64,000 bases of DNA, from positions 1 through 64,000 of IMG/VR virus record IMGVR_UViG_3300036828_000142, one strand, 5' to 3'. The DNA comes from a virus. The notes under the pieces were generated by a model, which saw nothing but the letters and a program-made list of their open reading frames with translations, had not been told where the DNA came from and ran no database searches. This document shows positions 4,567-28,048 of the stretch, piece after piece. The translations under genes and the position numbers were made by a program. Numbering within the stretch: the stretch's first letter is position 1; every line of letters starts with the position of its first letter.

Positions 4567-4769
4567 CCGACGAACCGCTGTACGTCAGCCTCCAATCCCT
4601 CGGCCTGTACGCACCGAACGGGCTGGAATGCCCCGAGGGCGGCTACCACGCGATCCTCGAACCCGAGCTACAGATCGCCGTCGCGGACGCGCTCGCGGAC
4701 GGGATGACCGACGTGCGCTGCCAGAAGTGCGGCGAACCGGTGGACCTGCGCCCCGTCCACCAGCTTTAG
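4563..4769 (+). CDS. Hypothetical zinc-knuckle protein
   Basis: 68 aa from GTG 4563. LECPEGGYHAI and VRCQKCGEPVDLRP provide Cys and His ligands; the middle is helical. It ends at TAG 4767-4769, the last gene of the first coupled run; the following 214 bases are non-coding. Confidence 0.6.
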   Translation: MTDEPLYVSLQSLGLYAPNGLECPEGGYHAILEPELQIAVADALADGMTDVRCQKCGEPVDLRPVHQL

Positions 4770-4983
4770 CGCAGATAACTTCCGTCGAACGCCGTAGACG
4801 CAACCCCACCCGCGCTGGCACGATTCCCGGCGGGGGCGTCGGTGGTCACCGTGAAACCGGCTGGTCGCTCGACCGCTGGCGCTCTCCCTTCTCCCAACCA
4901 AAGAGACGTGGTGGGTGTCGGCCAATCCCCCGGTACCACGGCCGACACCTGCCGCCTCTCTATGCAGTTGCATTCACCAAGCG
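4770..4983. other. Non-coding gap with a perfect inverted repeat
   Basis: No convincing gene is seen. A perfect 10-bp inverted repeat, GGTGTCGGCC at 4914-4923 and GGCCGACACC at 4940-4949, surrounds a 16-base loop containing the palindrome GGTACC. It could be a terminator or a leader structure for the gene at 4984. A TAGCGCA half-site at 4767 resembles the left arm of the dyad element, but no right arm follows. Confidence 0.5.
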
Positions 4984-5154
4984 ATGCTCACGTTCCAGAT
5001 CCGCCTCGACGGTGGCGTGGACATCACCGGCAGCGTGAGCGACCTCGCTGACCTGATCGGGTGGCTGGCGGTCGCGATCAAGCACGGCGAAGCGACCGCC
5101 GCCTACGTCCCTGACCGGGGGCTGGCGAGCATCCACATCGTCCGCGACGACTAG
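4984..5154 (+). CDS. Hypothetical protein
   Basis: 56 aa, MLTFQIRLDGGVDITGSVSD then a helical stretch and a C-terminal beta strand (GLASIHIVRDD). ATG 4984 lacks a strong ribosome-binding site. Its TAG (5152-5154) shares the CTAG sequence with the stop of the convergent candidate gene on the other strand. Confidence 0.55.
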   Translation: MLTFQIRLDGGVDITGSVSDLADLIGWLAVAIKHGEATAAYVPDRGLASIHIVRDD

Positions 5155-5417
5155 CCAATCGGCTGGTAGCGATCCGTTTGCATTCGGCGACCGCCGAGCT
5201 GATCGACGCGGCGCATCCGGATACGTGGCGATGGTCCGCCGACGCCGTACACCATCGGCCGGGTGCAACGCACCGCCTCGAACAGACGCGGCTTGAACAG
5301 CACCGGCGCGAACTGCGCAGCGGCATCGACCCGCGCGATCTCGTAGTTGACGAGCACAGGCTCGATCTGACGCTGCCCACGCTCCGGCAGGTTCCTGAGG
5401 ATGATCTGGTAGCTCAC
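5151..5417 (-). CDS. Candidate leftward gene, unknown function
   Basis: 88 aa on the minus strand from GTG 5415-5417, beginning VSYQIILRNLPERGQRQIEP and ending TDRYQPIG. It has varied composition, high GC at third positions and a C-terminal region rich in Arg. AGAGG lies only 1-2 bases before the GTG, which may mean a leaderless or poorly defined start. Upstream on its strand is the 5456-5492 hairpin, which would insulate it from rightward transcription. A plus-strand frame (5178-5453) occupies the same DNA, so the assignment is uncertain. Confidence 0.45.
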   Translation of the reverse strand: MSYQIILRNLPERGQRQIEPVLVNYEIARVDAAAQFAPVLFKPRLFEAVRCTRPMVYGVGGPSPRIRMRRVDQLGGRRMQTDRYQPIG

Positions 5418-14679: not shown

Positions 14680-15270
14680 CTACGCTGGACGCCAGGTCAC
14701 GTCACAGAGCCCGCCGCACCCGAGCGCATCCTTCAGATTGACGTTCAGATCGAACGTCCGACCGGCGACGTACGGCCCGTGGTCATCCATCGTCGCGGTC
14801 ACGCATGTCGAACCGTTGCAGATCACGATGCGCGCTCCGCACGGCAGGATCAACGACGCGAACTGATACCCCGACTGCGCCGGAGCGCCGCACGCGCCGG
14901 TGCCGGACAGGTCGTAGTAGCTCGCGAGCGCCGACTGCATCGCCGGAGCGGGAGCAGGCGCGGGATCTGCCGCTGGCTGGTTCGGGACGAAGTGGTGCGC
15001 CACGTGTGTGGCTGCCGGGTAGGCGACCGGTCCGATCATCCGGTGCAGCACGCTCGTGGACGTAAGCACCCGCTCGTCGGTCGGCGGTTCGTGGCAGGTG
15101 CGGTTCGCGCCCATCAGCTTGCAACCGGCGGCGCGGAGGCCGAGCTGCTGAACCACGTGCGCGTAGGCGTGGTAGTAGGCGTGCTTCTGGGTGTGTGAGA
15201 GGCGCGCGTTCGCGGCTCCAGGCACAGCGACGGCCAGCATGATGCTGGCCGCGAGAGTCAAGCGTTTCAT
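14680..15270 (-). CDS. Secreted RlpA-like double-psi beta-barrel protein
   Basis: 196 aa, transcribed leftward. Residues 1-22 form a signal peptide (MKRLTLAASIMLAVAVPGAA then NA before the cut). Residues about 112-196 match the RlpA/DPBB fold: SALASYYDLSGTGACG, LPCGARIVICNG, CVTATMDDHGPYV and GRTFDLNVNLKDALGC. The fold binds or cleaves peptidoglycan glycan strands in several families. Residues about 23-65 are a separate helical segment. Its product would be exported by the infected or lysogenised host, suggesting a role in lysis, cell-wall remodelling or exclusion. ATG is preceded by CAGGAG, and a long structured leader lies upstream. Confidence 0.82.
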   Translation of the reverse strand: MKRLTLAASIMLAVAVPGAANARLSHTQKHAYYHAYAHVVQQLGLRAAGCKLMGANRTCHEPPTDERVLTSTSVLHRMIGPVAYPAATHVAHHFVPNQPAADPAPAPAPAMQSALASYYDLSGTGACGAPAQSGYQFASLILPCGARIVICNGSTCVTATMDDHGPYVAGRTFDLNVNLKDALGCGGLCDVTWRPA

Positions 15271-17689: not shown

Positions 17690-17976
17690 TGCTCGTCATC
17701 GAGGTGTGGAACGGCTACTGCTGGAAGGTCGTGGGGCGGATGAAACCGGGGGTGCGGCACACCGTGCTTGATCACAACCGAGGGGTGCTGCTGCACCTCG
17801 TGATCGAGCCGGAGCGCACCACGGTCCGCGCCACCACCGAGCCGTACGAGGTGCTGCTCGAACTGGGCCCGGCCGACGAGCCGTGGGAGCGTCTGCTGCG
17901 CGCGAACTGGATGCCCGAGTCGATGCTCTGCCGCCTGCATCACCAGAAGCAAAAGATTCACACGCCTCCAGTCTGA
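17686..17976 (+). CDS. Hypothetical protein
   Basis: 96 aa from GTG 17686 (GTGA overlap). Beta-rich, with WNGYCWKVVGRM and VLLHLVIEPERTTVRATTEP, ending in a CRLHHQKQKIH stretch. It closes the 15.5-18.0 kb run. Confidence 0.58.
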   Translation: MMLVIEVWNGYCWKVVGRMKPGVRHTVLDHNRGVLLHLVIEPERTTVRATTEPYEVLLELGPADEPWERLLRANWMPESMLCRLHHQKQKIHTPPV

Positions 17977-18186
17977 GAGCGGTAAGCTGCCCCGGCCGCG
18001 AGAGCACCGTGGCAACTCTGAATAGCTGACTAGTACCACTGTCTGTGTGTCGAGTGGTGAACGTCTGGGTGCACAGACAAAGTGGCGGGATTGGAGGGGG
18101 CCGATAGCTGAGGTTTCGGGGCAGGACCAAGTAGTCCGGGGGATGTAGGACCAACAGTCCGGGGGAAACCAAATCGAAAGGGCAAG
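17977..18186 (+). promoter_or_regulatory. Long structured leader with apparent pseudoknot and twin hairpins
   Basis: A -10-like TAAGCT (17983-17988) could start a roughly 190-base leader. Within it ACCACT (18035-18040) pairs with AGTGGT (18053-18058). GTCTGTG (18041-18047), inside that loop, pairs with CACAGAC (18072-18078), which is an H-type pseudoknot layout. Two near-identical units then follow: GGAC-CAAGTA-GTCCGGGGGA (GGAC at 18124) and GGAC-CAACA-GTCCGGGGGA (GGAC at 18148). They end shortly before the start codon at 18187. Function is inferred only. Confidence 0.5.
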
Positions 18187-18969
18187 ATGAACCTGAAGCA
18201 CAATCTCAGGCTGCTCCTGGTTGGAGTAGTCAGCACTGGCGTGATCGTGGCCGGTGTCGCGAGCGCGGACGCGCATACCACCGCCCATCACAAGGCCGCA
18301 GTCGCTCACAAGACCTTCAAGGGACCGAAGGGTGATCGTGGTCCAGCGGGTCCTCCCGGCCCCGCAGGTCCGAAGGGTGACACTGGTCCCGCAGGTCCGG
18401 CAGGCCCGGCAGGTCCGGCGGGCGCGATGGGGCTGATTGGTCCAGTCGGTCCAGTCGGTCCGGCAGGCGGAATCGGTCCGGTTGGTCCGGCGGGCCCCGC
18501 AGGTCCAGCAGGTCCGAAGGGTGATACCGGCGCGGCTGGTCCAGCAGGTCCGCAGGGCGCTACCGGTCCGGCAGGCCCGAGCAACACCTCGGAGTTCACG
18601 TTCAAGGGCGACACCAGCACGCCGACCACGCTCGTGTCAATGGACGATGGCGTGAAGCTGAACGCCTCGTGTGACGCGCTTGGGCGTGTGACGCTGATCG
18701 CCGTGGCGACGAACGTCGCACCGGGCATTCTGACTGAGCGTGACGGGCTGAACTTCAACATCACGCCGAGGTTCGGCACCGCGAACACCACCGCTGTCGT
18801 GCTGCTCTCGCCGCTCAGCTCGGCAAGCTCACGCGCTGACGTGACGGTGCACTACGTCTCCAACGCAGGACAGGACACCACCATCAACGTCGCAGCGGTC
18901 GATCTGGCCGACGGGCCGAACGGCCTGAGCGAGGCTTGCGTCGTGTTCGGAACGGCAACCACGTTCTGA
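18187..18969 (+). CDS. Secreted collagen-like protein
   Basis: 260 aa. Residues 1-29 are a signal peptide (basic NLKHNLR, then [19 protein letters not shown]). Residues about 44-136 are an uninterrupted Gly-X-Y collagen repeat rich in GPAGP and GPKGDTG. Residues about 137-260 form a beta-rich C-terminal domain with two Cys (NASCDAL and SEACVVF) that could bridge. Collagen triple helices act as rigid stalks. Because of the export signal this protein probably decorates the host surface or medium rather than the virion. It has a dedicated structured leader and a strong terminator, so it is an isolated unit of the moron type. Confidence 0.85.
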
Positions 18970-19461: not shown

Positions 19462-19548
19462 CCGATCACGCCGTCTGTAGCGTTACCATGCCGCACAAAT
19501 GGCGCTGGGCGACGCAACTCCCAGAGAGGGGTAGAGGGGACGGGCGCG

Positions 19549-19854
19549 GTGCTGGAAAGAGGTCTTGCGGCTGACTTGCCGCGAGGTCATCCCGACGAGT
19601 TCACAGGGTTGGCGATGACACCGGCAGAGCAGATTCGCGTCCTCTTGCAGCGCAAAAAGTCGCAGGGGATCACCGACTGGCAGGTTGTCTGGCCGTGGGC
19701 TGTCGCGCGGATACGCTGGCCGCACGACCGTGACGAGCGGCACGAGTGGAAGCTCACGATCCAGTGGGCGGAGCCCGCGTACCACTCCGCGTTCGAGGGC
19801 AGGCTGTGGGTCGTGGACATGGGCGCGCTGATCGTCTACCCAGTCACCCTGTAA
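19549..19854 (+). CDS. Hypothetical protein
   Basis: 101 aa from GTG 19549; ATG 19615 would give 79 aa and match the well-folded part beginning TPAEQIRVLLQRKKSQG. The C-terminal part is beta-rich and aromatic (WQVVWPWAVARIRWPHD). Start uncertain; no family recognised. Confidence 0.55.
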   Translation: MLERGLAADLPRGHPDEFTGLAMTPAEQIRVLLQRKKSQGITDWQVVWPWAVARIRWPHDRDERHEWKLTIQWAEPAYHSAFEGRLWVVDMGALIVYPVTL

Positions 19855-27315: not shown

Positions 27316-27543
27316 ATGATCTTGGCCGCTATCAGCGACCCGACGCTGCTGGGGCTCGCCGCGATTGTCACTGCTCTCGGCGGGGTGGCTTCGACCGTTA
27401 TGGCGTTACGCAGGACCCGCAGCGAGGATCACGAAGCGTGCTTGGAGCACCTCAAGGAAGCTCGCGCCGAGGCCGAGGCGTATGCGCAGGAGCTGCACAA
27501 GCTGAAGATGGACAAGCTGGACAAGGAGGGGGATGAGGGCTAG
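27316..27543 (+). CDS. Membrane protein with coiled coil, holin candidate
   Basis: 75 aa from ATG 27316. One hydrophobic segment ([20 protein letters not shown]) is followed by a long charged helix ([20 protein letters not shown]). One transmembrane helix plus a charged coiled tail fits some actinophage holins. It overlaps the next gene by 11 bases. Confidence 0.55.
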
Positions 27544-28048
27544 CCGCATATTTGCTGCGACCGGCGGCGCGGCGTTCCTGTCCGCAGGCGGGCTCGCAAC
27601 GGCCGCAGCAGTGTCAAGCTCCGCACCGCCGCCGGTCAAGACGGTGACGGTGAGCCTGTCGCCTGGGCCACGCGGACCGCGCGGTGCGACGGGACCGGCG
27701 GGACACACTGGCGCAACGGGACATTCTGGCGCGACCGGCGCAGCCGGGACGACCGGTGCGACCGGGCCGCAGGGTTTGCAAGGTCCGCAGGGCCTGAAGG
27801 GCGACACGGGTGCGACTGGTCCAACTGGCCCTGGTGGAACTGGCAGTGGTGCAACTGGTCCAACGGGCCCGGCTGGTGCTACCGGTCCGCAGGGTGCGAC
27901 TGGTCCTGCTGGTGCCACGGGACCACAAGGACCTGCTGGCAGCTTCTCGTGTTACACGGGCTACTCGCCGGGCATCCTGGTGATCAACCAGCCGGGTGGG
28001 AAGGTGAGGATCTATACGTGCATCGAGGACGGCGCGGGTCGTCGGTGA
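27533..28048 (+). CDS. Exported or membrane-anchored collagen-like protein
   Basis: 171 aa. Residues 1-32 look like a signal or anchor ([20 protein letters not shown]). Residues about 45-135 are Gly-X-Y repeats rich in GATGP and GPQG. Residues about 136-171 hold two Cys in a small cap ([20 protein letters not shown] ... YTCIEDG). Together with the collagen-like gene at 18187 it is a second phage collagen with an export signal. It sits between holin-like genes. Confidence 0.75.

What the first reader, a model, noticed from the sequence alone, without database searches (positions are those of the whole stretch)
17977..18186. Pseudoknot plus twin GGAC hairpins ahead of the secreted collagen gene
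The 210-base leader contains a self-consistent H-type pseudoknot (ACCACT/AGTGGT with GTCTGTG/CACAGAC) and two near-identical units, GGAC-loop-GTCCGGGGGA, ending before the start codon. Such a compact fold is uncommon for phage leaders and could be a riboswitch, a protein-binding operator or an exported RNA.
Basis: partly seen in the sequence, partly recalled or inferred. Interest (0 to 1): 0.62.

Follow-up and report, generated by a model that had tools for sequence, protein, structure and literature searches.

The report
Structured leader of swappable phage cassette
The stretch ahead of this phage's collagen-like gene is an untranslated RNA leader of an independent add-on gene cassette. Its front hairpins are kept in related phages even where the gene behind is replaced by another secreted protein, and it probably protects and boosts the messenger rather than acting as a riboswitch.

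Summary
The motifs are present at the stated coordinates, but the proposed pseudoknot is not supported. H-type pseudoknots of that size occur in 4.5% of shuffled leaders and 17% of same-length stretches of this phage. A competing nested hairpin (18036-18085) is far more stable and is kept in both related leaders found. The 'twin GGAC hairpins' are a recent 24-nt tandem duplication: one relative (L110) has one copy, the other (L151) none. Rfam gives nothing and the leader as a whole is no more stable than shuffles.

What is conserved: in L110 and L151 a -10-like box is followed within 6-8 nt by an invariant hairpin (GCCGCG-ANNGCAC-CGTGGC), the nested hairpin, and a G-rich Shine-Dalgarno-like tract without a start codon. 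In L151 the same promoter, leader and terminator enclose a different secreted protein, so the leader belongs to a cassette slot, not to the collagen gene. Twelve leaders with their own promoter all carry an orphan SD-like tract, nine of them 72-95 nt before the start codon. Best reading: the 5' leader of an accessory ('moron') cassette, acting as a STAB-SD-like mRNA stabiliser or ribosome-docking leader. That function is inferred, not shown.

The parts
17983..17988 (+). -10-like box TAAGCT; likely start of transcription about 6-8 nt downstream
   Evidence: by eye; same place in L110 (TAGGAT) and L151 (TAAGAT) and TA-N3-T boxes in most other leaders; no sigma-70 consensus pair found by the scan, so inferred
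17995..18013 (+). 5'-terminal hairpin P1: GCCGCG - AGAGCAC - CGTGGC
   Evidence: stem identical in window, L110 and L151; loop varies at two positions
18036..18085 (+). nested hairpin P2: CCACTGTCTGTG ... CACAGAC-AA-AGTGG
   Evidence: z -3.6 against shuffles; both arms kept in L110 and L151, CCACT-to-CAGAC span 43/43/41 nt
   Evidence: present in sequence; chance-level; stem 1 kept in L151, broken in L110
18093..18100 (+). orphan Shine-Dalgarno-like tract GGAGGGGG, 5' end of best 10-mer 95 nt before the start codon, no start codon following
   Evidence: in all 12 own-promoter leaders; 72-95 nt before the start in 9
18123..18170 (+). tandem duplication of a ~24-nt unit AGGAC-loop-GTCCGGGGGA (twin GGAC hairpins), window-specific
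   Evidence: single in L110, absent in L151
18177..18183 (+). ribosome-binding site AAAGGGC of the collagen-like gene
   Evidence: read directly; kept as AAAGGTC in L110
18187..18969 (+). secreted collagen-like protein, 260 aa: signal peptide, Gly-X-Y repeats, conserved 128-aa C-terminal domain
   Evidence: Pfam Collagen PF01391; C-terminal domain in 13 IMG/VR contigs plus L152
18982..19016 (+). terminator-like hairpin GACCCCCAGGA ... TCCTGGGGGTC (no U-tract)
   Evidence: near-identical hairpin closes the cassette in L110 and L151

Best explanation
The 210 bases are the promoter and untranslated leader of an autonomous accessory ('moron') cassette that carries one secreted protein at a time. 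Transcription starts near 17994, so the messenger begins with hairpin P1, followed by hairpin P2, an SD-like G-rich tract that serves no start codon, and then the true ribosome-binding site. Most likely the terminal hairpin and the orphan SD tract (by docking 30S subunits) keep 5'-end-dependent nucleases off the mRNA and raise the yield of the secreted protein, as in STAB-SD and aprE-type 5' stabilisers. Shown: conservation, architecture, exchange of cargo between relatives. Inferred: start of transcription, stabilising or ribosome-docking function.
For: Leader homologous in L110 (71% over 336 bp, E 1e-45) and in L151 (69% over 133 bp, E 2e-11), although L151's gene is a different 583-aa secreted protein between homologous flanking genes and the same terminator. 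P1 stem invariant, beginning 6-8 nt after the -10 box in all three. P2 kept with near-constant span and more stable than shuffles in window and L151. Orphan SD tract in all 12 own-promoter leaders, 9 of 12 within one 25-nt band (2 of 400 shuffles as tight), none followed by a start codon at 9-22 nt (2 of 300 shuffles). A CGA[AG] motif follows the tract in 8 of 12, expected 1.1 (0 of 300). Hairpins at the 5' end and SD sequences without a start codon are known mRNA stabilisers (PMC3997798; PMC4113751).
Against: No transcript data; start site and promoter are by eye and the sigma-70 scan found nothing. Only three close leaders exist, so covariation is almost untestable. The manual P2 alignment was fitted to the structure. 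The first 35-110 nt of other leaders do not fold better than shuffles. G-rich leaders give SD-like tracts easily: in the window the tract itself is matched by 27% of shuffles. The band test excluded three leaders without their own promoter; with them it weakens to 15 of 400. The start-codon test weakens to 11 of 12 (16 of 300) if the interval is moved to 11-24 nt. The CGA[AG] motif was chosen after seeing the sequences.
Confidence: 0.5

Rival explanations
1. Ordinary leader under little selection: only promoter and ribosome-binding site matter, and the similarity to L110 and L151 is common descent in a closely related phage lineage.
For: Whole leader z -0.23; window-L110 alignment folds no better than column shuffles; only two close relatives, both syntenic; far leaders unalignable.
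Against: Conservation is patchy: P1 and the 5' arm of P2 nearly invariant while neighbouring leader diverges; both arms of P2 kept; orphan SD tract in all 12 own-promoter leaders without detectable overall similarity.
Confidence: 0.3
2. DNA-level element: conserved promoter region and terminator act as homology arms for cargo exchange, or the tract and CGA[AG] motif form a repressor or activator site.
For: Cargo exchange between shared leader and shared terminator is seen directly; G-tract plus CGA[AG] is sequence-conserved rather than structure-conserved.
Against: The two arms of P2 are kept while the loop between them diverges; the tract's spacing is tied to the start codon more than to the -10 box (19-104 nt from it).
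Confidence: 0.13
3. Regulatory RNA: a pseudoknot operator or ligand-binding riboswitch that controls the collagen gene.
For: ACCACU/AGUGGU becomes UCCACU/AGUGGA in L151; CCACU has two alternative partners, so a two-state switch is possible.
Against: Broken in L110; chance-level; nested fold about -23 kcal/mol against -15.8 for both bare pseudoknot stems before any loop penalty; no Rfam match; same 5' leader serves an unrelated gene in L151.
Confidence: 0.07

Closest known systems
STAB-SD 5' mRNA stabiliser of Bacillus thuringiensis cry3A
   Same: SD-like tract far upstream of the start codon that does not direct initiation (PMC4113751)
   Different: Here the tract is G-rich, about 100 nt into the transcript in the window clade and behind two hairpins; stabilisation not shown; host unknown
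5'-terminal stem-loop stabilisers (aprE leader; papA and the E. coli 5'-terminal stem-loop studies cited in PMC3997798)
   Same: hairpin at the predicted 5' end of the messenger of a secreted or surface protein
   Different: start site not mapped; sequence unrelated
T4/T2 gene 32 pseudoknot operator
   Same: phage leader with a possible H-type pseudoknot upstream of the start codon (PMC3014915)
   Different: pseudoknot not favoured here; gene product is a secreted collagen-like protein, not an RNA-binding protein; leader also serves another cargo
Phage moron / accessory loci
   Same: apparently self-contained transcription unit in a variable slot, transcribed independently (concept as in PMC6469090 and PMC7067206 abstracts)
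   Different: leader and terminator shared while the cargo gene is exchanged

Membership tests
STAB-SD 5' stabiliser | SD sequence in the 5' UTR that is followed by no start codon | tested here: met
   12 of 12 leaders at 9-22 nt
STAB-SD 5' stabiliser | located at the 5' end of the stable transcript | tested here: inconclusive
   19-37 nt after the -10 box in six leaders, about 100 nt in the window clade and 60-63 nt in two; start sites unmapped
STAB-SD 5' stabiliser | prolongs mRNA life by 30S binding | not testable with these tools
   needs half-life measurement
gene 32-type H-type pseudoknot operator | two coaxial stems kept by covariation | tested here: not met
   stem 1 broken in L110; covariation within shuffles on MAFFT alignment
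gene 32-type H-type pseudoknot operator | bound by the gene's own product | not testable with these tools
   product is a collagen-like secreted protein
known riboswitch or other Rfam family | match to a covariance model | tested here: not met
   no match at gathering score or at E up to 5
phage moron | variable gene in an otherwise conserved neighbourhood | tested here: met
   collagen in window and L110, different gene in L151, between homologous flanking genes
phage moron | own promoter and terminator | tested here: inconclusive
   -10-like box by eye and shared terminator-like hairpin; consensus scans found neither
phage moron | expressed in the lysogen | not testable with these tools
   no expression data

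The most novel reading that the evidence does not exclude
A new family of phage leader RNA elements (5' hairpin pair plus orphan SD tract with a following CGA[AG] motif) that works as a portable expression module: phages exchange the secreted cargo behind it while leader and terminator stay.
Probability: 0.25. Interest if true: 0.55.

Novelty: new variant of a known kind. Interest (0 to 1): 0.35.

Why it matters
If the reading is right, accessory genes of these phages travel with an RNA module tuned for high output of secreted proteins, and cargo can be swapped behind it. That would give a recognisable marker for such cassettes and an example outside Bacillus of a non-initiating Shine-Dalgarno tract used in a leader. 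If wrong, it is still a useful case: an attractive pseudoknot read by eye that dissolves on comparison with relatives.

Tried and rejected
Rfam at gathering and relaxed thresholds: nothing. Pattern scan for twin GGAC/GTCCGGGGGA units in IMG/VR: 23 hits whose sequence contexts show no relation to the leader, taken as chance. Scan for the P1 loop plus ACTCTGA: only L110 plus two unrelated hits. Scan for the 3' leader end: no new leader. Weak leader match in L152 at 4057 lies inside a reading frame, rejected. A P1-loop pseudoknot (AGAG with CTCT) fits window and L110 but not L151. Leader peptide behind the G tract: reading frames differ between leaders with no common start codon or stop, read by eye on the sequences, rejected. 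G-quadruplex: considered because of the G runs, not tested. AlphaFold model of the collagen C-terminal domain (pLDDT 63) gave no significant PDB match. C-terminal domain absent from named phages and from genome contigs apart from 28-29% matches in Levilactobacillus.

Full report
Setting. The window is part of a 72,422-base IMG/VR virus record; G+C-rich, with tape-measure and endolysin-like genes. The leader lies between a short gene ending at 17976 and a 260-aa collagen-like protein with a signal peptide, 18187-18969.

Check of the observation. The quoted motifs are there. A 6/7-bp H-type arrangement is found in 45 of 1000 shuffles and in 305 of 1824 same-length windows of this genome, and the leader as a whole folds like its shuffles (z -0.23). 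The pseudoknot competes with a nested hairpin that uses the same GTCTGTG/CACAGAC helix and pairs CCACT with AGTGG at 18081 instead; that hairpin has -23.4 kcal/mol and z -3.6, whereas the two bare stems of the pseudoknot sum to about -15.8 before loop penalties. The twin GGAC units are a real tandem duplication, with stems of only four pairs.

Relatives. The collagen gene's C-terminal domain was found in 13 IMG/VR contigs. One, L110, has the same gene neighbourhood and a homologous leader. Flanking genes brought in a second relative, L151, whose leader is homologous over its first 130 nt but is followed by a different secreted protein of 583 aa; the flanking genes and the terminator hairpin are shared. 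The leader therefore belongs to the slot, not to the collagen gene. The GGAC unit is single in L110 and absent in L151, so it belongs with the collagen cargo.

What is conserved. In all three, a -10-like box is followed after 6-8 nt by the hairpin GCCGCG-ANNGCAC-CGTGGC with an identical stem. Then comes P2, with CCACTGTCTGTGT invariant, CAGAC invariant at a span of 43, 43 and 41 nt, and a diverged interior. Counting pairs on a hand-made alignment, the pseudoknot's first stem is complete in window and L151 (with one A-U/U-A exchange) and has two mismatches in L110; its second stem, shared with the nested hairpin, is complete in window and L151 and has one mismatch in L110. On the automatic alignment the covariation is not above shuffles. 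With three sequences the structure cannot be settled; the nested form is favoured.

An unlooked-for feature. Leaders of the remoter collagen genes share no detectable overall sequence with the window's, but all 12 leaders with their own promoter have a G-rich SD-like tract well upstream of the true ribosome-binding site. Nine of 12 lie 72-95 nt before the start codon (2 of 400 shuffle sets as tight; 15 of 400 if three leaders without a promoter are included). None is followed by ATG, GTG or TTG at 9-22 nt (2 of 300 shuffle sets; 11 of 12 and 16 of 300 if the interval is 11-24 nt), and 8 of 12 are followed by CGA[AG] (expected 1.1). These tests were designed after looking, so the values are guides. 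In the window the tract is GGAGGGGG at 18093-18100. Relative to the -10 box it lies 19-37 nt downstream in six remote leaders and about 100 nt in the window clade, as if P1 and P2 had been inserted between promoter and tract.

Mechanism. Hairpins at a messenger's 5' end, and SD sequences without a start codon, are known to protect mRNA from 5'-end-dependent decay (PMC3997798); the cry3A STAB-SD is the type case (PMC4113751). The anatomy here fits: terminal hairpin, second hairpin, orphan SD tract, true ribosome-binding site, gene for a secreted protein, terminator-like hairpin. I give this 0.5. Promoter and start site are read by eye (the consensus scan found none), and no function is shown. 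Rivals: leader of no special function (0.3), DNA-level element (0.13), regulatory pseudoknot or riboswitch (0.07).

Verdict. The finding is real as a structured, partly conserved leader, but not as the pseudoknot described. It is most likely a new variant of known 5' stabilising leaders, in a cassette whose cargo is exchanged.

Noticed in passing
L151 4535-2784 (minus strand): 583-aa secreted protein with repeated LEICK/LKICK-type segments that replaces the collagen gene in the same slot; no Pfam or NCBIfam match and no relative in the phage collection.
   Followed up: partly
window 27533-28048: A second small collagen-like secreted protein (171 aa) that starts inside the end of the preceding gene, with no long leader.
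   Followed up: partly
L117 around 4600-5384: In this 122-kb contig the collagen gene sits between homologs of the window's structural genes (33.7 and 35 kb) in the opposite orientation, as expected for a mobile accessory gene.
   Followed up: partly
window 19478-19549: Leader of the next gene contains GGGCGACGCAACTCCCAGAGAGGGG, which resembles the motif before the G tract in collagen leaders and could form a small hairpin or pseudoknot.
   Followed up: no
leaders of L107, L116-L119, L152: CGA[AG] motif 6-12 nt after the orphan SD-like tract in 8 of 12 leaders, with near-cognate codons (ATC, ACG, ATT) where a start codon would be expected; meaning unknown.
   Followed up: partly
window 14680-15270 (minus strand): Secreted protein on the opposite strand with a TMDDHGPYVAGRTFDLN motif that resembles RlpA/double-psi beta-barrel proteins (from memory), 84% identical in L110; no Pfam match.
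   Followed up: no
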